Part shown: positions 1-17,339 of the stretch, in pieces
Layout of the letters: every line of letters starts with the position of its first letter
Numbering within the stretch: the first letter of the stretch is position 1
Source of the DNA: Oscillospiraceae bacterium
GTDB taxonomy: Bacteria > Bacillota > Clostridia > Oscillospirales > Acutalibacteraceae
NCBI GenBank assembly: GCA_031266365.1
Contig: JAISBE010000019.1
Span: 44,892 to 108,891 of the forward strand
DNA: 64,000 nucleotides
Direction: 5' to 3'
Notes under the pieces: model-generated
The model's input: the letters and a program-made list of their open reading frames with translations, nothing else
Database searches by the model: none
What the model was told of the DNA's origin: nothing
Translations under genes and position numbers: made by a program

Positions 1-52
1 TATGATAAAATAGCACTAAGAAAATAAAAGCTTTGAAAGGACTTTAAATACA

Positions 53-1669: not shown

Positions 1670-1720
1670 CCCCTCGCACCGCAACCTGCCTCTTGAGGCA
1701 TTTCTCGCGTGGGCAACTTT

Positions 1721-1840
1721 GCGGCGGTGGGTGGCATACGCGTTTTAGGGCGCACGGATTACCTTTCTAGCGAAGCTCGCCCCTTCTCGCCAAAAGCCTA
1801 TAGGGTAGCTTTTGGCGCTCGAAGGGGCGTTAATCGCACT
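1721..1840 (+). pseudogene. Duplicated 3' fragment of the phosphosugar mutase gene
   Basis: Positions 1721-1828 repeat 1490-1597 of the upstream mutase gene with few differences; the stretch encoding GGIRVLGRTDYLSSE is almost unchanged. Similarity fades before the RPSGTEP-coding part. There is no start codon context or full domain, so this is a remnant. It sits at the junction with the array whose first stop codon is at 1905, suggesting that recombination at the array edge duplicated and truncated the neighbour. Confidence 0.75.
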
Positions 1841-1904
1841 GTTTACTTGATTTTGTTCGTTCTTTTCTTTGTGCGCATGTTGGATGTCCGGGTCGTTCGT
1901 CAGA

Positions 1905-3386
1905 TTACGTTTGTTTGAACGACTTTTCTGCCATGACCGCGCCGTTAGCCCCACGGAATTTGTAACCCAGCGTGGTGCCCGGGCTCGAGTGCTCGCCGGT
2001 TTCTGCGAACACGTCCGCGTTCTTGTTACCTTCCGTGGTTACCTTAGCGAGAGTGGTTTCCTTACCGTCCGGCGATGTTGCTGTGAAAGTTATAGTGCCC
2101 TTTAGTCCTCCTTTGAGCCCGCACACGGCCCGCCATGCACCAGGTGCCACCCTGTACAGCGCTAAGTGCTCGGCCGATGTAGCGTAAACGCTAGCTGTTC
2201 TGGCTTCTTCTGCGTTGCTGGTTAGCGCTGTCTCAGTTGCGAGTCTCGTGGATGCATCTATGTCTCCTAGTGCGAGCGCCACCGAGAAACGCCCGGCATC
2301 CGTTTTCCTCAACTGAGTCGACACAATTTTTGTGTCGCTGTTAAAGTTTACGTTTGATAGGGTAGAGGTACCGGTTGCCGTGTTGGTCCATCTACCACGT
2401 AGCGTAGTCGGCGGCGAGCCGGTTCCAGCGTAAGTTGCTTGGTAGAGCCAGTTTCCGTCCACGGTTGTCAGCGACGGCCCTGTGAGCGTCCATGCCGCCG
2501 TGGCAGGGGTGGTGGTGCCCGTCGATTGCCGGGCCCCTCCCGGGTATATTACAGTATCCGCTGAGTGGTCGTCAGGGAAGACCAGTTTCAGCCCCACTTT
2601 TTCGTCGCTTCCCCATCGTTGGTAGTTGTAGGTGTATTGGCCCGCTGCGTTTGTTCGCAATGTCGCCGTCGGCGCCGCCGGCCAAGTTCTGGTTGTGCTC
2701 ACGTACACCGATACTTCGCGCCCGCCGATTGCCTCTCCGGCCCTTGTCTGGGTACAACGGCCCGTTACCGTCACCTCCGTATCCGTTTCCGAGTAGGTTG
2801 GTTGGTCGAAGACCACTCCCGCCTCCACCGTGAACCAACCCCATGCCTTGTAGTTCGCCGTTTCACTGATCAGCATCTGCTTCGCTATCGCGGCCGAGTT
2901 CACACCGTTGTTTCCGTGTGATGCGGCCCAGTTTCCGCCGATCGCCGGTGCGCCTCCTCCTACCACTCCAGCCACCGTATGGTGGTCGTTTCCCCCCGCC
3001 TGGCATGCGCTGCTGACCATTCGGTATTTACCCGCAGGCATGTTCACGAGTGTGATGTCCAGAGGGCCCTTCACCCTGCTTACGTACCATAGGTTAGCTG
3101 CGTCTGTACTTGCTGCCCCCACTGCGTTGTTTGTTACTCCTCTCCCTTTAATGTCTATTAGGTCACCGTCTTCGTTTTCCACGCCGATTATATCGTGCGA
3201 CACTGCCGCTGTTTTTGCTACAGACGGGAAGTCCGCCTGTATCGCTGTGATGTGGACGGTGTTGCCGGTAACAGCCGCCTGGTACGCTGCGTCGGCGAGC
3301 TGGACCCGTGGAAGAAAGGTAGCAGCGGCCATCGCAGCCGCAAAGGCAAGGGAAATAATGCGTTTTTTGCGATTCATGATAGTCAT
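1905..3386 (-). CDS. Array member 1: large exported multi-domain protein
   Basis: Unrecognised exported protein of 493 residues, the largest of the array. Residues 1-33 form the family signal peptide (MTIMNRKKR, hydrophobic core, cleavage near LADA). Residues 35-130 hold the family module with TGNTVHI at the start and MPAGKY at 116-121. A bacterial Ig-like stretch follows at about 195-255 (TEVTVTGRC ... TNAAGQYTYNY), then two more beta-rich stretches up to the C-terminus. There are no catalytic motifs, membrane anchor or LPXTG signal, so release or non-covalent surface attachment is inferred. The ATG is preceded by AAGGAAG eight bases upstream, identical in most members. Body G+C is much higher than in flanking genes. 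Confidence 0.75.
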   Translation of the reverse strand: MTIMNRKKRIISLAFAAAMAAATFLPRVQLADAAYQAAVTGNTVHITAIQADFPSVAKTAAVSHDIIGVENEDGDLIDIKGRGVTNNAVGAASTDAANLWYVSRVKGPLDITLVNMPAGKYRMVSSACQAGGNDHHTVAGVVGGGAPAIGGNWAASHGNNGVNSAAIAKQMLISETANYKAWGWFTVEAGVVFDQPTYSETDTEVTVTGRCTQTRAGEAIGGREVSVYVSTTRTWPAAPTATLRTNAAGQYTYNYQRWGSDEKVGLKLVFPDDHSADTVIYPGGARQSTGTTTPATAAWTLTGPSLTTVDGNWLYQATYAGTGSPPTTLRGRWTNTATGTSTLSNVNFNSDTKIVSTQLRKTDAGRFSVALALGDIDASTRLATETALTSNAEEARTASVYATSAEHLALYRVAPGAWRAVCGLKGGLKGTITFTATSPDGKETTLAKVTTEGNKNADVFAETGEHSSPGTTLGYKFRGANGAVMAEKSFKQT

Positions 3387-3540
3387 GATATCGACTTCCT
3401 TTCGTTTGTAAAAATATTTTTAAAAAATTTTGGACCTTCTGGCGAAATGGATTTCCAGAGGTTACGCAGTCGAATTGATTTCACCAGCCTTTCCATCTAT
3501 TAGTATATAATGTTTTTAAATCATTGTCAACAGATAATAG
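3387..3540 (-). promoter_or_regulatory. Promoter and leader of array member 1
   Basis: On the minus strand TTGACA (3525-3530) and TATACT (3502-3507) are 17 bases apart. The transcript leader carries the family's A-rich block and AAGGAAG ribosome site. It is most like leader type A (members 5, 7, 9, 10), including the GGCGAAAT-like element seen on the plus strand near 3441. Confidence 0.65.
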
Positions 3541-4194
3541 AAAAATTTTTTTATAAATTACTCCAATCTACCATTCTCAAAAATTTCAATGCTAAATCAC
3601 GACGATAAGCTTGCTCTAGTCAGTACTATTATCCTCCGTACAAGCAAATAATCGTGCTCGATGTAAATTAGTGCTCACATGCCAACAGTAAGATCATTAT
3701 TTGTATGGAACTATGCTGCTCGCGACCCATTCTATGCTTTTACTTGCTGTGATTCTAGCCCGCTTTTTCTGGTAGGGCGCCTCGAGCGCCATTACGGGGA
3801 GTTACACCGAGCGCCGCGTCCCCGCCTGCAAATTAGTGCTCACATGCCAACAGTAAGATCGTTATTCTTTAGGGTTCCGTCACAGGATATGCCGGTAGCG
3901 GCGCTGTGCGTAGCACTACGGTAGTAGTCTGCTTAGCCCCCCGTTTGATGCGGCAGTAGAGGCGTGTGACAGCGTGATAAGATGCGGGGTATCCCTGTGT
4001 GCGGTTCGGTGCCGTGCGGTAGGACGCTCGGCGCGGATGGCGTGCACTAGTGGGCAAGCAAGATTTCCTAGATACTAGATATCGGTGCTTTTCGTGTCTC
4101 CCAGCCACCTTATTTGTATTACGTCCGCTGATCTTCCGCGTTGCTCCACTGTAGCAATAACGCTATGATCATGGATGGCACGCTTCAGTAGCGT
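3541..4194. other. Gene-free interval with a 31-bp direct repeat
   Basis: I see no convincing gene in this interval between members 2 and 1; the open frames lack ribosome sites and family features. An exact 31-bp direct repeat is present at 3665-3695 and 3830-3860, beginning AAATTAGTGCTCACATGCC. Composition is G+C-rich like the array bodies, so it may be decayed array sequence. Confidence 0.5.
3665..3860. repeat. 31-bp direct repeat pair
   Basis: The two copies, 3665-3695 and 3830-3860, are identical over 31 bases and 165 bp apart. The sequence between them is not obviously repeated. Possibly a footprint of recombination in the array. Confidence 0.8.
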
Positions 4195-4818
4195 TCACTT
4201 TCCTGTCGCGATCGTCGGGGAGCATCTCGATCCCGCAGTCGGTCTCTCAGTGCGCGGTCCCTTTATCTCGAACACAACTCCGTCCAGGTTGTCGAAAGGC
4301 ATCGTTTTGACCTGGGCATCAGTCGGGGGCATCCAACCCACGATATTGTACATATGGTAGCAGGATGGTTGCGCGTTGACGCAGTCCGGTTCCTCAGCCC
4401 TGGTGTCCCACTTTCTTGACGCCACATAGGCGTTCGGGTTGGGGTACCCAGCTTCCGGCGGGGCGTAGTGTATCGTTGCACCGTAGAACCCTGGTTCCAA
4501 TCCATGTATATTGTAGTCGTGGGGTCCCGTTCCCTCTAGAACTATCATATACGGACCGCTAGTCAAGCAGTCGGGGGGTACACAGCCATTGAGGTTCACC
4601 GGCTTTGCACAGCCGTGCTTGAACAAGTAAAACACTTGGCTTTGCCCCCCGGGCACCCCCGCAAGTCTACCTCGGCCCTTCACGATAACTGAGTTTCCCG
4701 TTACTTCCGCTTGCGCTTGCCACGCGCCAGCATGAAATCCATCCGTTAAAGGGGTGACGGCTAACACAGCCGCAGAAACAAGAGCAACCATGCGTTTCTT
4801 GCGATTCACTTTATTCAC
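4195..4818 (-). CDS. Array member 2: short exported protein
   Basis: Exported protein of 207 residues with no recognised function. The signal peptide is MNKVNRKKRM plus a hydrophobic core, with likely cleavage after AQA near residue 38. One copy of the family module follows: EVTGNSVIVKG, a YLFKHG strand and LEPGFY at 107-112. The mature part has several cysteines (for example 70, 79 and 84), compatible with disulfides outside the cell. Together with member 9 it is one of two single-module members. The start is supported by AAAGGACG upstream within the conserved leader. The N-terminus varies from the MNxMN pattern of the others. Confidence 0.7.
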   Translation of the reverse strand: MNKVNRKKRMVALVSAAVLAVTPLTDGFHAGAWQAQAEVTGNSVIVKGRGRLAGVPGGQSQVFYLFKHGCAKPVNLNGCVPPDCLTSGPYMIVLEGTGPHDYNIHGLEPGFYGATIHYAPPEAGYPNPNAYVASRKWDTRAEEPDCVNAQPSCYHMYNIVGWMPPTDAQVKTMPFDNLDGVVFEIKGPRTERPTAGSRCSPTIATGK

Positions 4819-4984
4819 GATATCATCGTCCTTTCATCTTATAAGGCTGTGCCGCCTGGGGATAGTATTATTTTTGAAAGCTTTTTAAAAGATTAGTTCT
4901 ATTAGTAGGCGGCTAAAAATTAAGCTTATTGCTTAACAAGTTGGCAAAAACTTTTACACTAAATACAGCAAATCTGGTGCAAGC
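4819..4984 (-). promoter_or_regulatory. Promoter and leader of array member 2 (type B/C hybrid)
   Basis: The ATG-proximal half matches the leaders of members 3 and 4 (type B), while the distal half, with CAAAAACTTTTACACTAAATAC, matches type C. A weak promoter, TTGCCA (4942-4947) with CTTAAT (4919-4924), has a 17-base spacer. In the RNA, GCCGCCU (4913-4907) can pair perfectly with AGGCGGC (4857-4851), closing most of the leader into a loop. Confidence 0.5.
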
Positions 4985-5992
4985 CTAGGCCCCTTGTCTA
5001 AGGTGTCCGACGTTGAAGTATACGATTGCGTAGCTTCCCCGTGGCCCGAAGGCGGTGTTTTCTTCGAAGTCGTTAAAGGTCCTGTTCTTTGTTGGCCACC
5101 ACCCACTTCTCGGTTCCTCCCCTGGGATAGCGATCGGACCGCCCCAGGCTCGAGGTGATCTCGGCCATTCTTGTTCGTAACATACCTTCCTCACTAGCAT
5201 GTATTTGCCGTCGGGTAGCGTGAATTGTTGCATGTCGCCCTTGTTATTACGCCTGACTATGACGGTCGGCATATTTTGCTCTAACTCGCGGGTTGTAAGT
5301 GGTAGAGGATTGGATTGTCCCTCAGCTAAGAGAAACCAGTAGTTCGCTGTTGCGTTGTACCCATATTCTGTGTCCGCCGGTATATCGCCAGTCTGAACAG
5401 CAACCCTGTTACCTTGTACTGTTACGCAGCAGTTGTGCGAGCTAAATCTGACCGCCCCCGTGTCCTTCGTATCACTAGCATCGTCACATGCTGCGTCCCA
5501 GTCAACTCGACCCGAACCAGGCGGGTTATCTGCTTCCCCGTGTTCGGGCCACGGAGGGACGCTGTGGGTCTGTCCGAATAATCCTTCGCCCTCTGGACAC
5601 CAGCTCTCTCTGAATTCATACCCTGGAGCTCTGCCACCGGTCAGAGAATCCAGCCAATCTCTATTCCTTGAGCCTACGACATAGACCAACCCCAGACCGC
5701 CAGGCCCCTGAACTGTGAAGACATTTGTCCCTGGGTGTACATTCTCCAGCATTATTGCCGCAGTCCTGTCTATTTGTCCATCGGGTAGGCGGTGTGGTAG
5801 CATCCAGGCATACTTTATTTGGCGGTCATGTGCATTTGTGCGGATTTCCCCGTACGACTTTCCGTCTTCGCTGCGCATTTGCACATGGACTCCTTTGATA
5901 TATGCTTTACCCGTGAATGATTGCGTAGCAACGGCTAGCACAGCCGCAGAAACAAGAGAAATAATGCGTTTTTTGCGATTCATGATATTCAT
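4985..5992 (-). CDS. Array member 3: exported two-module protein
   Basis: Exported protein of 335 residues with unknown role. The signal peptide is MNIMNRKKRIISLVSAAVLA, nearly identical at DNA level to members 4 and 5 although the mature part differs strongly. Two beta-rich modules: about 33-160, and 187-335, the latter with VTVQGNRVAVQ, a LLAEGQSNPLPL strand and LPDGKY at 259-264, ending in YAIVYFNVGHL. This body belongs with members 4, 5 and 7. Cysteines are few. Start chosen at the first ATG, preceded by AAAGGACG. It may be co-transcribed with member 4 because I see no good promoter in the 208-bp gap. Confidence 0.72.
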   Translation of the reverse strand: MNIMNRKKRIISLVSAAVLAVATQSFTGKAYIKGVHVQMRSEDGKSYGEIRTNAHDRQIKYAWMLPHRLPDGQIDRTAAIMLENVHPGTNVFTVQGPGGLGLVYVVGSRNRDWLDSLTGGRAPGYEFRESWCPEGEGLFGQTHSVPPWPEHGEADNPPGSGRVDWDAACDDASDTKDTGAVRFSSHNCCVTVQGNRVAVQTGDIPADTEYGYNATANYWFLLAEGQSNPLPLTTRELEQNMPTVIVRRNNKGDMQQFTLPDGKYMLVRKVCYEQEWPRSPRAWGGPIAIPGEEPRSGWWPTKNRTFNDFEENTAFGPRGSYAIVYFNVGHLRQGA

Positions 5993-6200
5993 GATATCAT
6001 CGTCCTTTCATCTTATAAGTCTGTGCCGCCTGGGGATAGCTTTATTCTCGCAGCCCGTGCGAAGATTGTTGCCGCAGGCGTCTTTGAAAACCGGGCGCAG
6101 TGCGAGAGACACTCAGCAACTTTTACAATGAAGTTAGTTGATCTCAGTTCCGCGTCCCCGCCAGCTGATAGTAGCCCGGCCATTTCGTAACAGTGTAATC
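5993..6200 (-). promoter_or_regulatory. Leader of array member 3 (type B)
   Basis: Nearly identical to 7188-7395, the leader of member 4, and the identity runs on into the 3' ends of the preceding genes. The conserved ATG-proximal block (CTTATAAG, CCCCAGGCGGC in RNA sense) is retained, but the AT-rich promoter of other leaders is replaced by G+C-rich sequence; no consensus promoter is seen. Confidence 0.5.
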
Positions 6201-7187
6201 TTAAGGTTTGCCGACCTTGATATGCACGACAGAGTAGCTACTGAGTGGCACCGTTTGGGCGCCATCGGCTCTCTCCTCTTCCCAAGCGCTACTAGGGCGG
6301 TACCCGCCCTCTGGCGGATGCGTTAGTGTCGGGTATCCGTGGTTGTCCGTAAACCTATGCTCGCTGCTGTCCTCCCACGGCAGTCCTCGCGCAACTACAT
6401 CGTAGTCTCCAGGTGGCAGTTCGATAGTCTCTATGGCGTTGGGCATCAGCGTGGGTTTGCGTTCTTCCTGATCTGATCTCGTCAAGCTTAATGGCACATC
6501 ACCGCCGCCCGATCTGAGTACGTAGCCAATCACCGCTCGTCCATTGTCATTATGCCCCAGCGGCGGTAATAGGCCACGCCAGTCCATCCGCACTGTGGTT
6601 CCCTGGACCGCTACGATGAGTCGGCCGCTCCGGTAGCGCACCAGGCCATCTTGAGGGTCCGCGAAGCGTCGTCCGTAGGCGCTTACGCCCCAGCGCCGCC
6701 CATCGTCGTCTAGCGCCCAAAGTCCATCGTAGTCTGTGTTGAAAGGTAGGCTTGTGTGTCGGTCTACGACACCATAGTCGTCGCCTAGGGTGAGGTAGTT
6801 CCGAGCTCGTTCCCCTAGAGTTCTCATCTTCTTACCGTTCCACAAGTCGGTCCATCCTTCCTCGCTGTGGGCACCCACAATGCAAGCCATGACGTGGTCG
6901 CCCTGCGGTCCTGCACGCAGCTTCGTTAACCCGGGCCGTAACCATTGTGATCTGGTACTCTCCCAACTTTCGCGCCAATTCGTGTCCCGCTCGCTCCATG
7001 CTAGGAGGGCATCTGCCCTTGACCTCCAACTACGTCTCGCTTCAATGGTCAGCCCACCCTGCTTGGTTACAATCTGGACATGAGCTGAAAGATCACATGC
7101 CAGACCCTTGAATGATGGTGTAGCAACGGCTAACACAGCCGCAGAAACAAGAGCAACAATGCGTTTTTTGCGATTCATGATATTCAT
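6201..7187 (-). CDS. Array member 4: exported two-module protein, sister of member 5
   Basis: Exported protein of 328 residues, function unknown. Signal peptide MNIMNRKKRIVALVSAAVLA with cleavage around residue 30. The second module starts near 180 (GRLIVAVQGTTVRMDW), contains YVLRSGGGDVPLSLTRSDQ and LPPGDY at 257-262, and ends VVHIKVGKP. It is clearly a tandem duplicate of member 5: both ends are nearly identical while the centre has many substitutions. No transmembrane segment beyond the signal peptide and no catalytic motif. Confidence 0.72.
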   Translation of the reverse strand: MNIMNRKKRIVALVSAAVLAVATPSFKGLACDLSAHVQIVTKQGGLTIEARRSWRSRADALLAWSERDTNWRESWESTRSQWLRPGLTKLRAGPQGDHVMACIVGAHSEEGWTDLWNGKKMRTLGERARNYLTLGDDYGVVDRHTSLPFNTDYDGLWALDDDGRRWGVSAYGRRFADPQDGLVRYRSGRLIVAVQGTTVRMDWRGLLPPLGHNDNGRAVIGYVLRSGGGDVPLSLTRSDQEERKPTLMPNAIETIELPPGDYDVVARGLPWEDSSEHRFTDNHGYPTLTHPPEGGYRPSSAWEEERADGAQTVPLSSYSVVHIKVGKP

Positions 7188-7395
7188 GATATCATCGTCC
7201 TTTCATCTTATAAGGCTGTGCCTCCTGGGGACAGCGTTATTCTCGCAGCCCGTGCGAAGATTGTCGTCGCAGGCGTCTTTGAAAACCGGGCGCAGTGCGA
7301 GAGACACTCAGCAACTTTTACAATGAAGTTAGTTGATCTCAGTTCTGCGTCCCCTTCAGCTGATAGTAGCCCGGCCATTTCGTAACAGTGTAATC
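7188..7395 (-). promoter_or_regulatory. Leader of array member 4 (type B)
   Basis: Second copy of the type B leader, nearly identical to 5993-6200. AAAGGACG lies upstream of the ATG. No consensus promoter is visible, so transcription may come from member 5 upstream. Confidence 0.5.
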
Positions 7396-8406
7396 TTAAG
7401 GTTTGCCGACCTTGATATGCACGACAGAGTAGCTACTGAGTGGCACCGTTTGGGCGCCATCGGCTCTCTCCTCCTCCCAAGCGCTACTAGGGCGGTACCC
7501 GCCCTCTGGCGGATGCGTCAGAGTCGCGTATCCGTTCTTCTCCGTAAACCAATGCTCGCTCTTCTCCGCAAACCAATGCTCGCTCCGGTCCTCCCACGTC
7601 AGCCCTCGCGCAACTACTTCGTAGTCTCCCGGCGGCAGTTCGATAGTCTCTATGGCTTTGGTCATCAGCGTGGGTGTGCGTTTTTCCTGATCTGATCTCG
7701 TCAAGCTTAATGGCACGTCACCGCCGCCCGATTTGAGTACGTAGACAATAACCGCCCGTTTATTTTCAGTATGCCGCAGCGCCGGTACTAGCCCACCCCA
7801 GCAAATTCGCACTTTGGTTCCCTGGACCGATACTGCGAGTCGGCCGCTATGGAAGTCCACCTGGTCCGAATGATGGTACTCTGAGAGGTGGCCGTGGGCG
7901 CTTACTCCCCACCAATCGCCGCGGTCGTCCCACGCCCAAAGCCGATGGTAGTCCGTGCTGAGAGGTAGTCCAGCCTTTAGATCTAGGACACCGCAGTCGT
8001 CGCCTAGCGTGAGGTAGTTCCAAGCCCTTTCTCCTAGATTCCGCGGCTTCTTACCGTGACATATCTGGGCCCACCCGTCATCGTTGTGTGCACCGACAAC
8101 GTTCGCTACGATGTCGCCGTGGTGTTCCCCTGCACGTAGTCTCGTTAGTCCGCGCCCCAAACATTGTGATCTGGTCCACACCCAGTGGTAGTCGTAATAA
8201 TGGTCCCTCTCACCCCAGGCGAGTAGGGCATCTTTACTTGAACTCCAACTACGTCTCGCTTCAATGGTCAGCCCATCCTTCTTGGTTACAATCTGGACAT
8301 GAGCTGAAAGATCGCATGCCAGACCCGTGAATGAGGGTGTAGCAACGGCTAACACAGCCGCAGAAACAAGAGCAACAATGCGTTTTTTGCGATTCATGAT
8401 ATTCAT
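7396..8406 (-). CDS. Array member 5: exported two-module protein with fresh in-frame duplication
   Basis: Exported protein of 336 residues, sister of member 4 with the same signal peptide, second module (GRLAVSVQGTKVRICW, LPPGDY at 257-262) and C-terminus VVHIKVGKP. It differs by an 8-residue tandem duplication, SEHWFAEK/SEHWFTEK, produced by a 24-bp direct repeat at 7537-7560 and 7561-7584. Its leader is type A, unlike the type B leader of member 4, so promoter and body have different histories. Start ATG with AAGGAAG upstream. Confidence 0.72.
   Translation of the reverse strand: MNIMNRKKRIVALVSAAVLAVATPSFTGLACDLSAHVQIVTKKDGLTIEARRSWSSSKDALLAWGERDHYYDYHWVWTRSQCLGRGLTRLRAGEHHGDIVANVVGAHNDDGWAQICHGKKPRNLGERAWNYLTLGDDCGVLDLKAGLPLSTDYHRLWAWDDRGDWWGVSAHGHLSEYHHSDQVDFHSGRLAVSVQGTKVRICWGGLVPALRHTENKRAVIVYVLKSGGGDVPLSLTRSDQEKRTPTLMTKAIETIELPPGDYEVVARGLTWEDRSEHWFAEKSEHWFTEKNGYATLTHPPEGGYRPSSAWEEERADGAQTVPLSSYSVVHIKVGKP
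7537..7584. repeat. 24-bp tandem duplication inside array member 5
   Basis: Two adjacent 24-bp units (7537-7560 and 7561-7584) differ at one base and keep the frame. Member 4 has a single unit at the matching place, so the duplication is recent. Confidence 0.85.
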
Positions 8407-8560
8407 GATATCGACTTCCTTTCCTTTTTTAAAAATTTGTCCTTACTGGCGAAATGCTTTCCGAAGGTTACACAGGTTAATTTAATTTCCCCAGTCAGTA
8501 CAGTTATAATTTTACACTAATTGTAAGATAATTGTCAATAGTATAGTAAAATATTTTCAC
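8407..8560 (-). promoter_or_regulatory. Promoter and leader of array member 5 (type A)
   Basis: TTGACA at 8533-8538 and TAAAAT at 8509-8514 on the minus strand, 18-base spacer. Upstream of the -35 is GTGAAAATATTTTACTA, a motif kept before other members. In the leader RNA ACUGG (8495-8491) can pair with CCAGU (8449-8445). The ribosome site AAGGAAG follows an A-rich tract. Nearly the same cassette precedes member 9. Confidence 0.7.
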
Positions 8561-8622
8561 AATTGATTTTGCGTCATTCGGAGTTAACTTCGCAACCGTC
8601 CGTAACCATCTCGCTCCTCTAG

Positions 8623-9579
8623 TCATGTTTCGCGACGGTCAGTACCGATGCTGAAACGAATCACAGTGAGATCCTCAGGAGCACTCAGAGAAAGATCATC
8701 GTTCATTCTTGGGCGTTCACAACCTAGCGGCAAACTTAGTCGTGTATGCGTCCACGGCAGATTGGGCATTGTATGTGAAGTGACGAAGATTTCACTGGTG
8801 AATCGTTGAACTAATGTATACACACCCTCCGTCAACTCTGTACTAAAATCGAGTGTATCACCTCGTCGCTTCGCTACAAAAGCCGCAGGCTTTAAGTGGC
8901 GCCCGTCTGAATTATGCATGGTGATTGGCTTTCCGTCTGGTCCCAGGACCCATGTCAGCAATACCTCCTCATCAACGTTTGGTACATCGTTCGCTTTAGG
9001 AACCGTCTGGACTCTAACTTTGTGACCATCGATCGTGAGAGTAGTTCGTCTTTGCGCCCGGACGATGGAAGAGCCAGTTCTTGAGTTTTCCATCGGAGGT
9101 ATTTTCACAAAATGGAATTCTGCCTTCTCCGCTTCCGCGACTGCGTCCCTGCGTTGTGGCGGCACCGCGAATGGATTTAATGGAAGAAGGTATCGATCTT
9201 CGTCGCCAGGTGTCTCCGGACAAAATGGGAACCGCACGACCAGAGCGTACGTATTAGAAGGCAGTTGGTCTAATCTAAACGTGACTGGCCAAAACCCGCT
9301 TTGCGGTAAATCTGGGGTGCCGTCGCTGCATAGCGCTTTCGAGAACATCGGATGCTTGGCGCCCGGCTCGTATAATTCCAATTTGACGCTCCGATAATCA
9401 CCGTTTGGAGCGGGTATTATATCCTGGTGGGATACTTCTACTTTCAAATTGTTACCATTCACCGTCCACGTTGCTCTTGGAAGCGCACTGACTGTGGCAG
9501 CAGTTGCTATCGCAGTTGCGCCTACCGAGGCCGCAAAAGCAAGGGAAATGACGCGCTTGTGGCGATTCATATTATTCAT
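8623..9579 (-). CDS. Array member 6: exported two-module protein
   Basis: Exported protein of 318 residues, no recognised function. Signal peptide MNNMNRHKRVISLAFAAS with an extended alanine/threonine core; cleavage near residue 33. The first module has LPSNTYALVVRF near 110. The second (RTTLTIDGHKVRVQ, WVLGPDGKPITMHN, LTEGVY at 249-254) ends in TVIRFSIG. The second module aligns with members 8 and 10 through the DGKP/RGEL/KGRP turn followed by a Pro/Ala stretch and a VAK/VVK strand, so 6, 8 and 10 form a body subfamily. Start supported by AAGGAAG. Confidence 0.72.
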   Translation of the reverse strand: MNNMNRHKRVISLAFAASVGATAIATAATVSALPRATWTVNGNNLKVEVSHQDIIPAPNGDYRSVKLELYEPGAKHPMFSKALCSDGTPDLPQSGFWPVTFRLDQLPSNTYALVVRFPFCPETPGDEDRYLLPLNPFAVPPQRRDAVAEAEKAEFHFVKIPPMENSRTGSSIVRAQRRTTLTIDGHKVRVQTVPKANDVPNVDEEVLLTWVLGPDGKPITMHNSDGRHLKPAAFVAKRRGDTLDFSTELTEGVYTLVQRFTSEIFVTSHTMPNLPWTHTRLSLPLGCERPRMNDDLSLSAPEDLTVIRFSIGTDRRET

Positions 9580-9725
9580 GATATCAGCTTCCTTTCGTCT
9601 TATAAATGTAAGCCGCCTAGGGGCTAACTATTCTTGCCGAGGCGTTAAAAAGCTTATTACCTTAGACGGCCATATTAGTATTTTATCATATTGCTAAGCG
9701 TTTGTCAATATGATAGCAAAAGTTT
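9580..9725 (-). promoter_or_regulatory. Promoter and leader of array member 6 (type C)
   Basis: Near-ideal promoter on the minus strand: TTGACA (9703-9708), 17-base spacer, TAAAAT (9680-9685). Upstream is GTGAAAAACTTTTGCTAT, shared with member 8. In RNA GCCGUCUA (9670-9663) pairs with UAGGCGGC (9619-9612), 8 bp with one G-U, enclosing most of the leader. Confidence 0.75.
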
Positions 9726-9814
9726 TTCACTAAATACATTATAAATAACGTGCAATTACAGCCTCTATGCAAGCGCGCCATTACCTCAATGCGAGACTGA
9801 TCAACAGTCTGAGT

Positions 9815-10828
9815 TCATCCTTGAGGGTTAAATTTACCAACTTCAAAGAACAATATTCTAAAGGGCACGTTCCACATGTCTGGTCGCAAGTTATAGTTGT
9901 CAAAGTCACCGTCCTCCAGAAGCGCGTAGCCGCCCGGCAAGCCGTGAAATCTGGTTCTTGCGGTGGGCGATGGGTTACCCTCCAATGGATCTTCCCGTAC
10001 GTACCGCCGCACAATGCAGTACCTTCCATCCGGCAGTTCAGTGGTTAATTGGCCACCAGCGAGACCTACTGCCGATAACACTGTGCCCTTCCCCGTCGTC
10101 ATACGGGCATGCGGTGGCAGGGGCACCGGTTGGTTGCCGTGTTCCTGAAGGACGTAAATCACATTGGCTTTAGCCGTTTCCAATGTCCGAGTCACAGCCG
10201 GTTCTGCGTCGGTGTCAATCGACACGATGGAACCGTTTACTTGTACGCGCATTTTAGGGGCATGGTAGGTTCTTTCTCCCTCGTATGGTCCATCCGTGCC
10301 ATCCGGTCCTGTGGCGGGTCCCACTGTTCCGCATATCCAGTGAGCTCCTTTTTGCTGAGCTGCACGACATTGTTCCGCCCCATCTTCGCCAAACGGGCTA
10401 AACGGGATTCGCCACATCCATTCTCCGCAGTCACCGCTACCCGTTCCACCGCGCGGGGGTTGCGTAAAGATTTTATCATCCCTGTCTAACGGCGCTAGGC
10501 ATGCGCCAATATCACCGCTCACTTGGTCCAGCATTGATCTGCTTCGTCCGGTGGGCACCCAGTGCCAATCTCTAGAGTCTGTGGACCGTCCAGTTGACCT
10601 GAACGGTATCGGTAGGTCGGTACGTTCACTGATCGCATAAGTCGCAAATAGTCCATCGCAGCCTTTCCGGACCCTTGTGTCCATCGCCGCCCACCCCTCG
10701 CCGGTGACCAACTGAACATGAGCGTCGTGGCGGGGTACTGCTGAGCTTGTGATCGATAGAGTAACAGCGGCTAACATAGCCGCAAAAGCAAGGGAAATAA
10801 TACGTTTTGTGTGATTCATGTTGTTCAT
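9815..10828 (-). CDS. Array member 7: exported two-module protein
   Basis: Exported protein of 337 residues, unknown role. Signal peptide MNNMNHTKRIISLAFAAMLAAVTL, cleavage near residue 30. The first module starts AHVQLVTGEGWAAMDTRVR, like the AHVQIVTK opening of members 4 and 5. The second (RVQVNGSIVSIDTD, YVLQEHGNQPVPL, LPDGRY at 265-270) ends RILFFEVGKF. It belongs with bodies 3, 4 and 5. Several cysteines in the first half could form disulfides. Start ATG with AAGGAAG. Confidence 0.72.
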   Translation of the reverse strand: MNNMNHTKRIISLAFAAMLAAVTLSITSSAVPRHDAHVQLVTGEGWAAMDTRVRKGCDGLFATYAISERTDLPIPFRSTGRSTDSRDWHWVPTGRSRSMLDQVSGDIGACLAPLDRDDKIFTQPPRGGTGSGDCGEWMWRIPFSPFGEDGAEQCRAAQQKGAHWICGTVGPATGPDGTDGPYEGERTYHAPKMRVQVNGSIVSIDTDAEPAVTRTLETAKANVIYVLQEHGNQPVPLPPHARMTTGKGTVLSAVGLAGGQLTTELPDGRYCIVRRYVREDPLEGNPSPTARTRFHGLPGGYALLEDGDFDNYNLRPDMWNVPFRILFFEVGKFNPQG

Positions 10829-10990
10829 GATATCAACTTCCTTTCCTTTTTAAAAAAATTTGTCCCTAATGGCGAAATGCACGCCTAAATGCAATTAAGT
10901 TAATTTTGCCAAGTGATATGCTTATAATTTTATTACACAATAAAGTACTTGTCAATAGGTATGATAAAAGTTTTCACTACATGCCTTACA
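10829..10990 (-). promoter_or_regulatory. Promoter and leader of array member 7 (type A)
   Basis: TTGACA at 10950-10955 and TAAAAT at 10927-10932, 17-base spacer. Upstream carries GTGAAAACTTTTATC. The leader is close to that of member 10 (shared GCAATTAAGTTAATTTTGCC on the plus strand). Confidence 0.7.
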
Positions 10991-11249
10991 GTCAGACCCT
11001 GTTGCTGTCGCAGTTGATTCATCTGAGCGAGCTCGTTTTCAAACAAAAGTAGGCTGTAGATCGCTGGGTCACCACGCTATAACTCCTCTGTGCTACAGTA
11101 TGCGTAGTCCCACATGCGTGCTAACGACTGAACAGTAGTATCGCTGTGTACGCTGCTTGGGCTTTATGTTTCACTCGAGCCACCAACCAAGTAGCGTTTT
11201 CAGTCCAGGTTATGCATCAACCAGCCGTTGTGACTAAGGTCCAGAGTCT
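10991..11249. other. Gene-free spacer between members 8 and 7
   Basis: G+C-rich sequence without a supported gene, repeat or hairpin that I can see. Confidence 0.4.
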
Positions 11250-12209
11250 CTACACGCTAAAAGGTACATCTGCCACTATAGTATGACCCGCCGCTGTATG
11301 TGCATAGCTGTGAGGGTCAACCGTAGTTAAACGTACCGGGATCGAACCGTGATCTCTGTTCCCAAATCGGCGTGTACTGGTCCACGATTTTGCCTCAGCT
11401 TGGCTGACGGCGACCGTTCGGAACGTGTAATCTCCAGGGCCTAAAGCAGAGCGCAAGGATAAAGCATCGCCCGGCGATTTCACGACCAGGCACGCGGGCG
11501 GCGAATCCGGCTTATCAGTGTTATTTATAGGCACTAGCTCCCCTCTGCTGTTTAATACGAAAGTCACGGCCACGCAGCCGTTCAGCGACTGACTGAATTC
11601 ATTCAGTGCGTCGTGATGTAAATGCACCTCAGTATTTCGCACCGTCACCATACTTTCCCCAAACGTAGTCGAGTGCCAGTACCGCCGTTCTCCATCGTGC
11701 TCGGGGTTCACATCGACGTTTACGCACAGCGCATCCATCCGGCGCGCCGCGCGGGCCCGCTGAACGCTGTTGTAGTGTTTTGTTGGGAGAGGCGCCCTCG
11801 GTTGGAGTTGCCACTCCGGAGCTCCGTTGTTCCATGTTGCATCCGACATACTCTTCTCTGTCCAATATTTGGCCATTACACTGTAGTTTCCGGGAATCAC
11901 TTCCCATTCGTTTATCAGCCATTGTCCTGTCACAAGACCATTTACCTGGGGTTCTCCTTGATCCGAATCGATTGCCATCCACTCCTTAGTGCTGTCATTG
12001 TAGACTCGGTATGACACCGGGCTTAACCGTTCCGCTTCGAGACCGAGGGCATCATCTCTTCGCAGGTGTACTCGCAGGCGCCGACCTATATGGGATACGT
12101 GTAGGTCCATCCCTGCACTGATCGTCGCTGAAGTGGATATCGTACCAGCGGCTAACATAGCCGCAAAAGCAAGGGGAATGATTCGTTTTGTGTGATTCAT
12201 GGTATTCAT
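11250..12209 (-). CDS. Array member 8: exported two-module protein
   Basis: Exported protein of 319 residues. Signal peptide MNTMNHTKRIIPLAFAAMLAAGTI with cleavage near residue 32. The first module has VIPGNYSVMAKYW near 100. The second (MVTVRNTEVHLHHD, FVLNSRGELVPINN, LGPGDY at 256-261) ends HTIVADVPFSV. Body subfamily with members 6 and 10, leader type C as member 6. No catalytic or anchoring motif seen. Confidence 0.72.
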   Translation of the reverse strand: MNTMNHTKRIIPLAFAAMLAAGTISTSATISAGMDLHVSHIGRRLRVHLRRDDALGLEAERLSPVSYRVYNDSTKEWMAIDSDQGEPQVNGLVTGQWLINEWEVIPGNYSVMAKYWTEKSMSDATWNNGAPEWQLQPRAPLPTKHYNSVQRARAARRMDALCVNVDVNPEHDGERRYWHSTTFGESMVTVRNTEVHLHHDALNEFSQSLNGCVAVTFVLNSRGELVPINNTDKPDSPPACLVVKSPGDALSLRSALGPGDYTFRTVAVSQAEAKSWTSTRRFGNRDHGSIPVRLTTVDPHSYAHTAAGHTIVADVPFSV

Positions 12210-12375
12210 GATATCAGCTTCCTTTCGTCTTATAAATTTAAGCCGCCTAGGTGCTAACTATTCTTGCTGTGGCGTTAAAAGCTTATTACCTTAGACGGCC
12301 ATATCAGTATTTTAGCATATTGCTAAGCACTCGTCAATAAAATAGCAAAAGTTTTTCACTAAATACATGGTAAAT
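12210..12375 (-). promoter_or_regulatory. Promoter and leader of array member 8 (type C)
   Basis: TTGACG (12332-12337), 17-base spacer, TAAAAT (12309-12314). Same layout as 9580-9725, including the pairing partners GCCGUCUA (12299-12292) and UAGGCGGC (12249-12242), and GTGAAAAACTTTTGCTAT upstream. Confidence 0.72.
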
Positions 12376-12742
12376 AGTGGGTAATTATATCCTTTCAAAA
12401 CACGGTGTTATAATGTGTCGATGTTGTGAATACGTCCCCTGAGCATTGACTGCTCGCGCCACCGAATGGCATACTTACTCTCCGGACAGCATCTTGAGGC
12501 GTTGGATACGACGGTCAGGTCTTCTCCCAGTTGGACGATTAACTGCATATTCAGGTCATAGATGCTACGCTTTTAAGGCACCCAGCTGCTGGCCGTCACC
12601 CACACATATTCCTAGCGTCGCGGGGTAAGCCCTCTTTCCCGATTTTTGCTCATTTAAACCACTTTATACAGCCAGACGTTATACATATGTCAGCTAGAAA
12701 CTCGCCGCACACCAGATGATATCGGCTAGCTTCGCCCGCATC
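12376..12742. other. Gene-free spacer between members 9 and 8
   Basis: About 370 bp with no supported gene. Short open frames lack ribosome sites and signal peptides. No repeat recognised. Confidence 0.4.
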
Positions 12743-13318
12743 TTACTCGTCGTGCTTGTTCATCGGATCCGTTTCACCGTCACCTATCGTGACCACTACG
12801 TACTGAGCTCTCGCGTGCTCAGCTTTTGCTTCTCGTTCTGCAGCCGGCCATTGCCACGGGTTAAAGAACCCGGTCAGCAGCATGAGCGGTGCTGTAGTAT
12901 TGAGCCACCAGGGATCGTATGTGCTTGGAACGGTGCATCCCATTTCACCATTCTTGACGTTCATGCAGCATACAGCATATTTGCCAGATTCAGTGAGGTG
13001 CCAATCCGCTATTCCTTGCTCTCCGATGGCCACCCAGTGGTCGCGAGGCAACTCGTGGCCCGACCCCCATAGGAGGCGACACGGTTCTGTTTGGCCTTCC
13101 TTCACGATGTACAGCAGTTCCACTGTGCCACCCTCATTTACTGTCGCAGGATCATCGGGGTGTTTCGCCCACACAACGTGAACTCCTCGCCCTTGTGCCG
13201 ACGCACTTAAATCAAAGGTACCGTGAACTGTCCAGCTGGTTATTGGTATCATAGCAGCGGCTATACTAGCCGCTAAGGCAAAGGGAATAATGCGTTTTGT
13301 ACGATTCATGTTATTCAT
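12743..13318 (-). CDS. Array member 9: short exported single-module protein
   Basis: Exported protein of 191 residues with unknown function. Signal peptide MNNMNRTKRIIPFALAASIAAAMI; cleavage near residue 33. The single module has LSASAQGRGVHVVW, a LLYIVKEGQTEPCRL strand and LTESGKY at 108-114. The C-terminus is charged (EREAKAEHARAQYVVVTIGDGE). The leader is nearly the same as that of member 5. With member 2 it shows that one module can stand alone. Confidence 0.7.
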   Translation of the reverse strand: MNNMNRTKRIIPFALAASIAAAMIPITSWTVHGTFDLSASAQGRGVHVVWAKHPDDPATVNEGGTVELLYIVKEGQTEPCRLLWGSGHELPRDHWVAIGEQGIADWHLTESGKYAVCCMNVKNGEMGCTVPSTYDPWWLNTTAPLMLLTGFFNPWQWPAAEREAKAEHARAQYVVVTIGDGETDPMNKHDE

Positions 13319-13475
13319 GATATCGACTTCCTTTCGTTTTTAAAAATTTGTCCTTACTGGCGAAATGACCTCCAAAGGTTGCTAGGTTAACTTAACTTCT
13401 CCAGTCAGTATAGTTATAATTTTATATTAATTGTAAGGTAATTGTCAATAGTATAGTAAAATATTTTCACAATAT
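13319..13475 (-). promoter_or_regulatory. Promoter and leader of array member 9 (type A)
   Basis: TTGACA (13443-13448), 18-base spacer, TAAAAT (13419-13424). ACUGG (13405-13401) can pair with CCAGU (13360-13356). Upstream GTGAAAATATTTTACTA is identical to that of member 5. Confidence 0.7.
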
Positions 13476-13694
13476 TAGCGTTAATAGCGCAATCGTAGCG
13501 CGCTAATCTCAATGATGTGAACTATCATCCTCGACCTCCATCGGCGGGCCCCGTTACCTCTTCTGATATTATGCGGTGATCGACACGCAAACGAGCGACC
13601 GTTAAGTTGCCTGGCCGACAAACAAGCATAAATTTAGAATTTCTTGAACGACAAAAGTCTGCGTAATTCTTCCTCTATCTAACGGATGGATTTC
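13476..13694. other. Gene-free spacer between members 10 and 9
   Basis: No gene, repeat or hairpin that I can support. Confidence 0.4.
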
Positions 13695-14660
13695 CTACGT
13701 ATTGACTGTGAAGTGTATTTCGGTCACGGGCCCATCATGGGCGGCGGCGAGGGGACAGCCGAATTCGTCGAAGGGCGTCGATTTAAAGAACACTCCCGGG
13801 AGTGATATTTGTTGCCTTTTTTCCCATGGCATACGAAATTTGGTCCGTTTTGCGAGCTCTTGTTCGCTCATAGCTGTCTGTACATATGTGTAAAATCCGG
13901 GCTTCATTTGACATTGAATGTGTACCCCGCTGCTGACGGACGAAGCTACTATTGCCGCTGGCAGTGAAGCAGGTTTTAAATCATTCGACAGTATTATAGG
14001 CCGGCCCTTGGCATCCAATATGCATGAAACCATAGTCTTTCGATCTGTTGGATCGTATGAGCAGACCCCTGGGTTTCGGCTGAGGTCTACCGTCGAACCG
14101 TTAACCGTAACTACAGTTCTACCGTTTCCGTCTACGCAGCTGTGTTGCTCGTGCGTCATCGATCTACCTGCCGTGCAACACACTCGCTCCACTAGTGCGT
14201 TTTGCTCTCTCCCGGCCCTTGCAACGTCAGCCAAGCAGTGATTTGCTGGGCAAAAGATTCGCTGCTTATTAACGTTAAAATCATCGCGGGCATCTCTACC
14301 AGGCCTCTCTCTGACTATGGCACCCGGCCACGACTGCAGCACTACCCAGTACACTCCAGGTGATAGATCAAAAGTTTCCAAGTGATCACCTCCCCCATGC
14401 ACCAGTACATAATCCATCTTCGCGCTCCCTCCACCGAGGCAAGGTAATGAGTTAGCACTATTTTCTAGGAAAACACGCACAGCAGCCGGAGGATTGCCAC
14501 AGCCGGTCATGCGAACTAAGATCTCCACTCTTGACTGATGTACGGAAACTTGCAGAATATTTTCTGCACTCACTGGTGCACCTGTTGATATAGTAGCAGC
14601 GGTTAATGCAGCCATAAAAGCAAGAGAAATAACGCGTTTCGTGCGATTCATGTTATTCAT
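13695..14660 (-). CDS. Array member 10: exported two-module protein
   Basis: Exported protein of 321 residues and probably the first gene of the array in transcription order. Signal peptide MNNMNRTKRVISLAFMAALTAATI with cleavage near SAE (31-33). Both modules carry the G-x-Y signature: LSPGVY at 99-104 and MKPGFY at 252-257. The second starts TVVTVNGSTVDLS and contains ILDAKGRPIILSN. It ends EIHFTVNT. Body subfamily with 6 and 8, leader type A. Cysteine-rich middle (about 130-185) may be disulfide-bonded. Start ATG with AAGGAAG. Confidence 0.72.
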   Translation of the reverse strand: MNNMNRTKRVISLAFMAALTAATISTGAPVSAENILQVSVHQSRVEILVRMTGCGNPPAAVRVFLENSANSLPCLGGGSAKMDYVLVHGGGDHLETFDLSPGVYWVVLQSWPGAIVRERPGRDARDDFNVNKQRIFCPANHCLADVARAGREQNALVERVCCTAGRSMTHEQHSCVDGNGRTVVTVNGSTVDLSRNPGVCSYDPTDRKTMVSCILDAKGRPIILSNDLKPASLPAAIVASSVSSGVHIQCQMKPGFYTYVQTAMSEQELAKRTKFRMPWEKRQQISLPGVFFKSTPFDEFGCPLAAAHDGPVTEIHFTVNT

Positions 14661-14800
14661 GATATCGACTTCCTTTCGTTTTTAAAAAATTTGCTCCTTC
14701 CAGCGCAATCCATGCCTAAATGCAATTAAGTTAATTTTGCCAAGTGATATGTTTATAATTTTATCACACAATAAAGTATTTGTCAATAGCATGACAAAAA
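14661..14800 (-). promoter_or_regulatory. Promoter and leader of array member 10 (type A)
   Basis: TTGACA (14781-14786), 17-base spacer, TAAAAT (14758-14763) on the minus strand. The leader is nearly that of member 7. Confidence 0.7.
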
Positions 14801-14862
14801 ATATAAGCTTAACACACCTAAATTTATATCGATATATTTTTTAAAGGATTCAATAAAAAACT

Positions 14863-14894
14863 AACTTGAAATTTTTTAAATTTCAAGTTATAAT
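14863..14894 (+). promoter_or_regulatory. tRNA promoter overlapped by a perfect 12-bp palindrome
   Basis: TTGAAA (14866-14871), 17-base spacer, TATAAT (14889-14894), followed by tRNA-Leu 14 bases later. An inverted repeat AACTTGAAATTT / AAATTTCAAGTT (14863-14874 and 14878-14889) covers the -35 and the whole spacer. It could be an operator, or merely a symmetrical AT-rich promoter. Confidence 0.7.
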
Positions 14895-14907
14895 ATTAAT
14901 AGAAAAT

Positions 14908-14993
14908 GCCGATGTGGTGGAATTGGCAGACACACCGCACTCAAAATGCGACGGATCTGATCCGTGCCGGTTCAAGTCCGGCCATCGGTACCA
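14908..14993 (+). tRNA. tRNA-Leu (CAA)
   Basis: Acceptor stem GCCGATG/CATCGGT, anticodon loop CTCAAAA with CAA at 14942-14944, a long variable arm typical of leucine tRNA (CGGATCTGATCCG), T-arm with GGTTCAAGTCC and an encoded CCA end. The first of a two-tRNA unit. Confidence 0.95.
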
Positions 14994-15024
14994 ATTATAA
15001 GTGAAATTTCAGCAAACCCCATTT

Positions 15025-15101
15025 CGAGGTGTAGCTCAGTTTGGTTGAGCGCTACGTTCGGGACGTAGAGGCCGCAGGTTCAAGTCCTGTCACCTCGACC
15101 A
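15025..15101 (+). tRNA. tRNA-Pro (CGG)
   Basis: Acceptor CGAGGTG/CACCTCG, anticodon stem CTACG/CGTAG with loop TTCGGGA (anticodon CGG), T-arm GGTTCAAGTCC, encoded CCA. Its last 12 bases overlap the end of mnmG on the other strand. Confidence 0.95.
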
Positions 15102-16958: not shown

Positions 16959-17339
16959 TATAACGTCGTAGTCGTCCGCTATAATACATAATCACCACCA
17001 TTAAAAATTTAAAAAAGCACAAACAAAGGTCGCCTGAGTATGTAAATATTATATTACAATAACTGTTATAAATAAACCCGACAATAAAACAAAAACAACG
17101 CCAAAAAGCAAGAATTTATATTTATGCAATTTAAAGCATATTGCCACTTGGATTTTGCATAAAAATGCAACGCCCGACTTATTTTGAGCTTGGCGAAAAA
17201 TTTTTTACTAATAATAACATTTATTTCTTAAATTATATTGATAAATACTAAAATATATTAAATATATTTTCATTTCAAATGGTATTTTACGATAAACTGA
17301 CCGGCGCACACATATATTAATATGAAAGGGTGGTCATTT
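16959..17339. promoter_or_regulatory. Intergenic region upstream of the double-glycine peptide gene
   Basis: AT-rich region between divergent genes. A candidate promoter for the peptide is TTGATA with AATATA 17 bases later around 17240-17270. The block TTGATAAATACTAAAATA reappears in altered form near 17703-17725. Confidence 0.4.

What the first reader, a model, noticed from the sequence alone, without database searches (positions are those of the whole stretch)
1905..14660. Ten-gene array of exported proteins with constant leader and variable bodies
Seen in the sequence: ten consecutive minus-strand genes share a signal peptide (MNxMNRxKR plus core) and a near-identical promoter/leader, while mature parts range from near-duplicates to barely alignable. 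Inference: a diversifying family of secreted or surface proteins, possibly for host/phage evasion, adhesion or competition. I do not recognise it as a known system.
Basis: partly seen in the sequence, partly recalled or inferred. Interest (0 to 1): 0.85.

Follow-up and report, generated by a model that had tools for sequence, protein, structure and literature searches.

The report
Mix-and-match secreted protein arrays
A small-genome gut bacterium, possibly living in or on single-celled gut protists, carries several gene clusters in which one fixed export tag is joined to ever-changing protein bodies, apparently a recombining set of secreted proteins that may be aimed at its host.

Summary
The ten-gene array is real at the stated coordinates and is one of at least five in this 1.10-Mb genome (44 intact genes analysed, 31.8 kb). 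The organism, probably an Acutalibacteraceae, lacks enolase and ATP/ADP translocase; PheT groups it with 3 of 9 translocase-positive (endosymbiont-type) relatives, MnmG does not. Each array has its own constant module (ribosome-binding site, signal peptide, often promoter) joined to GC-rich bodies (GC3 0.55 versus 0.35 in 19 core genes). Upstream module and body have discordant histories: g3/g4 are 95% identical upstream but 23% in the body; g4/g5 are 38% and 69%; upstream and body similarity are uncorrelated in 5 of 5 arrays. This indicates recombination between units. Of 44 proteins scanned, 3 reach a Pfam cut-off, all in array C22 and all for the Initiator-binding domain (IBD), the core-promoter DNA-binding domain of Trichomonas IBP39; the matches are partial. 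Best reading: a recombining repertoire of Sec-secreted, host-directed effectors of a protist-associated bacterium, working like phytoplasma effectors but without their signal family. Shared signals and module discordance are shown; secretion, host, delivery and targets are inferred.

The parts
1905..3386 (-). g1: secreted protein, 493 aa, body unrelated to g3-g8/g10
   Evidence: ORF; signal peptide; no family; own promoter at 3530-3502
4195..4818 (-). g2: secreted protein, 207 aa, GTG start, no strong promoter of its own
4985..5992 (-). g3: secreted protein, 335 aa; upstream module 95% identical to that of g4, body 23%
6201..7187 (-). g4: secreted protein, 328 aa; body 69% identical to g5, upstream only 38%
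7396..8406 (-). g5: secreted protein, 336 aa; upstream module of g9 type (88%) with body of g4 type; probable first gene of g5-g4-g3-g2
8623..9579 (-). g6: secreted protein, 318 aa; upstream 94% identical to g8, body 23%
9815..10828 (-). g7: secreted protein, 337 aa; upstream 88% identical to g10, body 20%
11250..12209 (-). g8: secreted protein, 319 aa
12743..13318 (-). g9: secreted protein, 191 aa, short body without convincing relation to the two-part type
13695..14660 (-). g10: secreted protein, 321 aa, 11 cysteines in the mature part
5902..6201 (-). 300-nt near-identical block (94% to 7097-7396): spacer from the stop of g4 to the first 91 nt of g3; trace of a tandem duplication or conversion tract
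   Evidence: the repeat finder family D4
7097..7396 (-). second copy of the same block, between g5 and g4
14758..14786 (-). promoter of g10 (TTGACA-17-TAAAAT); similar sites before g9, g8 (TTGACG), g7, g6, g5 and g1

Best explanation
The array is one of at least five loci in which a genome-reduced, probably protist-associated Acutalibacteraceae bacterium builds and renews a repertoire of Sec-secreted, host-directed effector proteins. Each unit has a constant module (ribosome-binding site, start codon, signal peptide, often a promoter) and an interchangeable body. Homologous recombination between constant modules and conserved intergenic blocks (unequal crossing-over, gene conversion) copies units and joins leaders to other bodies, and bodies then diverge fast. 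The products leave by the Sec pathway and are released in soluble form. Because such a cell has no outer membrane, secretion from inside a host cell or vacuole would put them straight into the host compartment. Bodies in array C22 carry a stretch resembling the initiator-binding DNA-binding domain of trichomonads, so at least that array may act on host transcription. SHOWN: arrays, shared signals, discordant upstream and body histories, distinct composition, IBD match above Pfam's cut-off. INFERRED: secretion and solubility, recombination as the agent, protist host, effector role, nuclear targeting.
For: Ten genes confirmed; four further arrays with their own constant signals: C20 (13 genes analysed), C10 (7), C4 (7), C22 (7). 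The motif GAAAGGAAGT-N5-9-ATGAA occurs 39 times in this genome and 0-7 times in each of the 397 other family genomes searched; the backwards control is 0 here. Upstream and body similarity are uncorrelated in 5 of 5 arrays (Mantel r -0.37 to 0.16, p 0.09-0.94). Near-identical upstream DNA precedes unrelated bodies (C12 g3/g4 95%/23%; C10 g1/g6 96%/20%; C20 g6/g7 97%/24%) and the reverse occurs (C12 g4/g5 38%/69%; C10 g4/g6 57%/68%). In the sliding comparisons of pairs with alike leaders and unlike bodies, identity falls between about codons 20 and 35. Along g4/g5, dS is 0.05 at the leader, 0.64 mid-body, 0.08 near the 3' end. Body GC3 is 0.55 in 44 array genes versus 0.35 in 19 core genes chosen from the window (p 6.5e-10). 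IBD (PF10416): 32.7, 27.5 and 27.2 bits against a cut-off of 25 in 3 of 9 C22 ORFs; no other Pfam family reaches its cut-off in the 44 proteins. Enolase is absent here, as in 12 of 15 translocase-positive relatives tested and 2 of 8 others. PheT joins this genome to three translocase-positive genomes at 89/89. Clostridial parasites of parabasalids with Sec-signal eukaryotic-like proteins are published (PMC10579323; sections 14 and 21 read).
Against: No ATP/ADP translocase here, so it is not a typical 'energy parasite'; the paper reports one clade member without it, and whether this is that genome is unknown. In the PheT tree 6 of the 9 translocase-positive genomes lie elsewhere, and MnmG puts this genome with only one of 8, so its position is open. 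The window encodes a secreted GH5 cellulase with a CBM, which also fits an extracellular, plant-fibre life. First-69-nt similarity does correlate with body similarity in C12 (p 0.001) and C20 (p 0.042), and in C22 the closest bodies (g3/g4, 53%) also have the second-closest upstream DNA. Hydropathy is no clean proof of solubility: in 3 of 44 (C20 g1, C20 g9, C4 g1) the best mature window scores above the signal region, and C22 g3 and g7 reach 1.56 and 1.55. The IBD matches cover 65-82 of 128 positions and no PDB chain was reached by single proteins or profile. No body in C12, C20, C10 or C4 suggests a host target. No relatives were found elsewhere, so no strain comparison was possible.
Confidence: 0.52

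Rival explanations
1. Antigenically variable surface coat or adhesins: the proteins stay on the cell and vary to escape predation by protists or host recognition.
For: Constant signal with variable bodies and recombining tandem copies is typical of bacterial antigen families (recalled); mature dN/dS 0.67-1.04.
Against: No LPxTG-like end and no mature hydropathy window above 1.56 in 44; bodies differ between arrays with no cross-array BLASTP hit at E 1e-3; IBD in C22 is odd for a coat.
Confidence: 0.18
2. Secreted antibacterial proteins or competition factors against other gut bacteria.
For: Small, diversified, signal-bearing proteins in arrays; small proteins with double-glycine-type leaders also occur in this genome.
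Against: No toxin family reaches its cut-off in the 44 proteins. No immunity genes are apparent between the C12 genes (read by eye); in C20 two other ORFs lie between g1 and g2 (L031:6387-7329) and were not studied.
Confidence: 0.1
3. Extracellular nutrient- or carbohydrate-binding proteins of a fibre-associated gut bacterium, diversified for different substrates.
For: A secreted GH5 cellulase with CBM2 lies in the same window.
Against: No CBM or substrate-binding family in 10 of 10 array proteins of the window nor above cut-off in the other 34; leader/body shuffling would be unusual for such proteins.
Confidence: 0.12
4. Recently acquired foreign DNA or decaying genes kept by drift, without a function.
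For: GC3 far above the core genes; long gaps (808, 533, 421 bp), a short ORF pair at L196:7827-8516 without an intact gene, and a partial second copy of the phosphoglucomutase 3' end at the array edge; dN/dS near 1 in one pair.
Against: 44 intact ORFs, similar ribosome-binding sites in five arrays, strong promoters, and signal-region dN/dS below that of the body in six of six pairs, though by only 0.02 in one and over 28 codons each.
Confidence: 0.08

Closest known systems
Phytoplasma secreted effectors (SAPs) and sequence-variable mosaics
   Same: Intracellular bacterium without an outer membrane (recalled) that secretes many small Sec-dependent proteins into the host cell; more than 50 candidates in AY-WB (PMC4235307, passages); repeats organised as recombining clusters called potential mobile units or sequence-variable mosaics (PMC5379588, passages).
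   Different: No SVM signal family (PF12113, number recalled) among the hits of the Pfam scans of the 44 proteins; no mobile-unit genes noticed by eye in the stretches read (not searched for); different bacterial group and probable host.
Secreted eukaryotic-like proteins of Candidatus Improbicoccus / Paraimprobicoccus (Acutalibacteraceae small genome clade)
   Same: Probably the same bacterial family, reduced genome, enolase loss, Sec-signal proteins thought to act in parabasalid hosts (PMC10579323, sections 14 and 21 read).
   Different: The main text names small GTPases, kinases and Myb-like proteins and does not contain the word 'tandem'; the sections read describe no constant-leader arrays; its supplements were not read. 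This genome lacks the ATP/ADP translocase.
IBP39 initiator-binding protein of Trichomonas vaginalis
   Same: C22 bodies match its DNA-binding domain family IBD; [quoted passage not shown]
   Different: Here it is bacterial, signal-bearing, partial (within positions 45-126 of 128) and present in a diversified array. That IBD is otherwise confined to trichomonads is recalled, not tested.
Recombining surface-antigen families of bacteria (e.g. mycoplasma or Anaplasma antigen families; recalled)
   Same: Constant 5' regions, variable bodies, recombination among copies.
   Different: Whole bodies are exchanged rather than variable segments of one protein; several genes have their own promoter; no surface anchor seen.

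Membership tests
Phytoplasma SVM/SAP effectors | SVM-type signal sequence (PF12113, recalled) | tested here: not met
   Not among the hits of Pfam scans covering 44 of 44 array proteins: 10 at E up to 1, 7 at E up to 10, 27 at E up to 0.1
Phytoplasma SVM/SAP effectors | Sec signal, no further membrane segment | tested here: inconclusive
   Hydropathy only: 44 of 44 have no mature window above 1.56, but in 3 of 44 the mature maximum exceeds that of the signal region; no signal-peptide predictor was available
Phytoplasma SVM/SAP effectors | Secretion into the cytoplasm of a eukaryotic host | not testable with these tools
   Needs localisation
Acutalibacteraceae small genome clade | ATP/ADP translocase (PF03219) | tested here: not met
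   Absent from G000; present in 23 of 398 family genomes. The paper reports one clade member without it
Acutalibacteraceae small genome clade | Genome mostly of 0.86-1.4 Mb and broken glycolysis (no enolase in the paper's three genomes) | tested here: met
   1,101,550 bp, 98.67% complete; enolase absent
Acutalibacteraceae small genome clade | Phylogenetic position within the clade | tested here: inconclusive
   PheT: with 3 of 9 translocase-positive genomes, 89/89, the other 6 elsewhere; MnmG: with one of 8, 86/88
IBD family (PF10416), for array C22 only | Score above the curated cut-off | tested here: met
   Of 9 C22 ORFs 3 above 25 bits (32.7, 27.5, 27.2), 3 below (16.7, 15.9, 12.4), 3 without match
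IBD family (PF10416), for array C22 only | Full-length domain or sequence match to a solved structure | tested here: not met
   The three matches above cut-off cover 65-82 of 128 positions; no PDB chain found

The most novel reading that the evidence does not exclude
A bacterium has turned the Sec signal peptide into a plug-in export module for an evolving effector library: five or more arrays, each with its own constant module and its own body families, kept compositionally apart from the genome by recombination; one library is built on a copy of the core-promoter-binding domain of its parabasalid host and reprograms or blocks host transcription initiation at the initiator element.
Probability: 0.25. 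Interest if true: 0.9.

Novelty: new variant of a known kind. Interest (0 to 1): 0.72.

Why it matters
It would show how a heavily reduced genome can still generate protein novelty: at least 44 genes, 41 of them without any Pfam match above cut-off, in 1.1 Mb, made by recombining a fixed export module with changing bodies. If the C22 bodies are true initiator-binding domains, it would be a bacterium targeting the basal promoter recognition of a eukaryote, and sequence alone would point to a parabasalid host for an uncultured gut lineage. The shared body composition (GC3 0.55 versus 0.35) across families that do not match each other also makes recombination-biased base composition in bacteria testable.

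Tried and rejected
Known families: the ten C12 proteins have no match in Pfam (E up to 1; one chance-level hit far below cut-off), PHROGs or NCBIfam. All 34 other analysed array proteins were scanned against Pfam (20 of them also): apart from IBD only hits below the curated cut-off (best DUF3301, E 0.0032, 17.6 bits against 25). Only four C22 members were scanned against NCBIfam, and the other arrays not against PHROGs or NCBIfam. Profile searches of the PDB gave chance-level hits. Profile-profile comparisons C12-C20, C20-C4 and C20-C10 found nothing, and the two halves of the C12 bodies are not demonstrably one duplicated domain.

Conserved mRNA leader structure: C20 leaders form a 5' hairpin (z -0.85 to -3.68 in six tested) but the seven C12 leaders do not exceed shuffles (z -0.77 to 0.24) and two C10 leaders give -0.27 and -1.03; only 1 of 15 C20 pairs shows a two-sided change. 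I claim no RNA element for this array. Rfam on window 1-17000: only the two tRNAs reached their cut-offs.

Mobile element: tRNA-Leu and tRNA-Pro lie beside the C12 array; none lies in the stretches read around C20, C10, C4 and C22. I noticed no integrase beside the arrays but ran no search for one. Remnants of bodies in the C12 gaps: none convincing.

Relatives: none in 59 relatives by the g10 protein, in 397 family genomes by the C20/C10/C4 profile beyond short signal hits in 3 (at most 8 candidates per genome scored), in 23 genomes by the C12 profile, viral contigs, phages (g5 only), plasmids (g10 only), or GTDB genome contigs by the C12 signal pattern. Records very near the window's genome may be left out of several of these by the tools.

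Rows left out: G027 gave no PheT match and was left out of the MnmG search; 5 of the 28 genomes of that search (G001, G007, G019, G034, G090) had split, partial or paralogous matches and were left out of the MnmG tree. The partial C20 gene L031:19721-19933, the C22 pair L196:7827-8516, the C3 genes, the C2-end gene and the L201 ORFs were left out of the 44-gene counts. The scripts stopped with an error after printing: one search was completed; the results used here were printed before the error.

Changes after re-checking: confidence lowered from 0.55 to 0.52 because 6 of 9 translocase-positive genomes lie elsewhere in the PheT tree and hydropathy is less clear-cut than first written; the Pfam scan was extended to all 44 proteins.
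Full report
WHAT IS THERE. The ten minus-strand genes exist at the stated coordinates and share a signal peptide with M1, N5, K8, R9 and A17 invariant. None of the ten has a credible match in Pfam, PHROGs or NCBIfam. Bodies g3-g8 and g10 share a two-part profile; g1, g2 and g9 do not convincingly. Seven genes have a strong sigma-70-type promoter; g2-g4 do not and probably follow g5 in an operon.

THE ARRAY IS ONE OF SEVERAL. A profile of the ten gave weak signal-region hits on other contigs of the same genome. Reading those stretches and a search for the ribosome-binding-site motif revealed four more arrays: C20 (13 genes analysed, signal like MKFTAKKFMSLVFAA), C10 (7), C4 (7, perhaps continued by one gene at the end of contig C2) and C22 (7, signal like MNLNFRKLKNSLLSLGLSA), plus a smaller group on C3. 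The five analysed arrays hold 44 intact genes, 31,848 bp, mean GC 0.53. Between arrays no mature part matches another by BLASTP at E 1e-3. The motif GAAAGGAAGT-N5-9-ATGAA occurs 39 times here; 234 of 398 family genomes searched have it at least once, the 397 others at most 7 times each (genomes drawn evenly from a larger family).

MODULES WITH DIFFERENT HISTORIES. In each array the 120 nt upstream and the body disagree: their similarities are uncorrelated in 5 of 5 arrays (Mantel r -0.12, 0.16, -0.11, -0.37, 0.16 and p 0.80, 0.09, 0.64, 0.94, 0.31 for C12, C20, C10, C4, C22). Examples: C12 g3/g4 95% upstream, 23% body; g4/g5 38% and 69%; g5/g9 88% and 21%; C10 g1/g6 96% and 20%, g4/g6 57% and 68%; C20 g6/g7 97% and 24%; C4 g5/g7 99% over the first 69 nt and 17% body. 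In such pairs identity falls between about codons 20 and 35 (windows of 60 columns). Against this, similarity of the first 69 nt follows the body in C12 (p 0.001) and C20 (p 0.042), and the closest C22 bodies (g3/g4, 53%) have the second-closest upstream DNA, as expected where whole units were duplicated. A 300-nt block spanning spacer and next leader is repeated at 94% between g4/g3 and g5/g4, and within g4/g5 dS rises from 0.05 at the leader to 0.64 in the body and falls to 0.08 near the 3' end. Tandem duplication and gene conversion through shared leaders and spacers explain these facts better than point mutation alone. Recombination itself is inferred.

FAST-EVOLVING, COMPOSITIONALLY DISTINCT BODIES. 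Mature dN/dS (Nei-Gojobori) in six paralogue pairs is 0.67, 1.04, 0.86, 0.72, 0.83 and 0.67; over the 28 signal-region codons 0.33, 0.19, 0.84, 0.42, 0.54 and 0.21. These averages do not prove positive selection. Body GC3 averages 0.55 in 44 array genes versus 0.35 in 19 core genes that I chose from the window (p 6.5e-10); the 45 nt before the start have mean GC 0.18-0.39 by array, and nine other secreted genes of the window have GC 0.37-0.46. That body families without mutual matches share this composition suggests a common process, such as biased gene conversion, or a common foreign source; I cannot separate these.

EXPORT. All 44 have an N-terminal stretch with the basic start and hydrophobic core of a signal peptide. 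No mature 19-residue window exceeds hydropathy 1.56 (C22 g3) and no LPxTG-like end was found, but in C20 g1, C20 g9 and C4 g1 the best mature window scores above the signal region. No signal-peptide predictor was available, so export and cleavage are inferred.

THE ORGANISM. MnmG's best named relatives are Ruminococcus sp. zg-924 (69%) and an Acutalibacter MAG (68%); that the family is Acutalibacteraceae is inferred from these. The genome is 1,101,550 bp, 98.67% complete. It lacks enolase, as do 12 of 15 translocase-positive relatives and 2 of 8 others tested, and lacks ATP/ADP translocase, found in 23 of 398 family genomes. PheT places it with three translocase-positive genomes (89/89), but the other six positive genomes in that tree lie elsewhere; MnmG pairs it with one positive genome (86/88) and leaves the rest scattered. 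Protein kinase domains are present in 24 of 24 genomes tested and so say nothing about lifestyle. Takahashi et al. 2023 (PMC10579323; abstract, sections 14 and 21 and passages read) describe a small genome clade of this family, with members intracellular in termite-gut parabasalids and Sec-signal eukaryotic-like proteins; one clade member lacked the translocase. Whether this genome is that one is unknown.

A CLUE TO THE TARGET. Of the 44 array proteins, three reach the cut-off of any Pfam family; all three lie in C22 and match IBD (PF10416) with 32.7, 27.5 and 27.2 bits against 25. Of the nine C22 ORFs scanned three more match below the cut-off (16.7, 15.9, 12.4) and three not at all. A model of the three passing cores finds g7, g1 and g2 of the same array (E 4.5e-8, 1.5e-6, 3.4e-5), g6 weakly (0.062), and nothing better than E 0.98 in the other arrays. 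IBP39 of Trichomonas vaginalis recognises the initiator and interacts with the RNA polymerase II C-terminal domain (PMC5366954, passages).

COMPARISON AND NOVELTY. It works most like phytoplasma secreted effectors (PMC4235307 and PMC5379588, passages) but fails the sequence test of membership (no SVM signal). Nine full-text searches were run; in the titles and abstract starts listed I saw no description of constant-leader arrays in this bacterial family. I rate it a new variant of a known kind.

HOW SURE. Arrays and shared leaders: near certain. Module recombination: about 0.85. Secretion: about 0.85. Protist host: about 0.55. Host-directed effectors: about 0.52. Action of C22 on host transcription: about 0.3.

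Noticed in passing
window 1713-1833: Partial second copy (81% identical) of the 3' end of the phosphoglucomutase gene (1482-1602), between that gene and the array; an edge scar of duplication or insertion.
   Followed up: partly
L196:6361-13397 (G000 contig C22): Secreted array whose bodies partly match the trichomonad initiator-binding domain PF10416.
   Followed up: yes
L199:261-4479 and L196:1404-2690: Several small proteins with double-glycine-type leaders (e.g. LNDDEL...GG) and differing cores, a second possible constant-leader export set; NCBIfam hits only weak and below cut-offs in the four scanned.
   Followed up: partly
window 33230-35122: Secreted GH5 cellulase with CBM2, unexpected for an obligate intracellular parasite.
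   Followed up: no
L035:4934-7985 (contig C3): Smaller group of signal-bearing genes with yet another shared start (like MLPTKIKKRIISLSFAA).
   Followed up: no
L031 and L032 leaders of array C20: 5' hairpin right after the predicted start of transcription in the C20 leaders, z -0.85 to -3.68 in six tested; not above chance in the C12 array.
   Followed up: partly
window 45296-45817: Signal-bearing protein with two similar repeats, each ending in a WxWxxVTKL-like motif; no family above cut-off.
   Followed up: no
L031:6387-7329: Two overlapping ORFs without the array signal lie between the first two C20 array genes.
   Followed up: no
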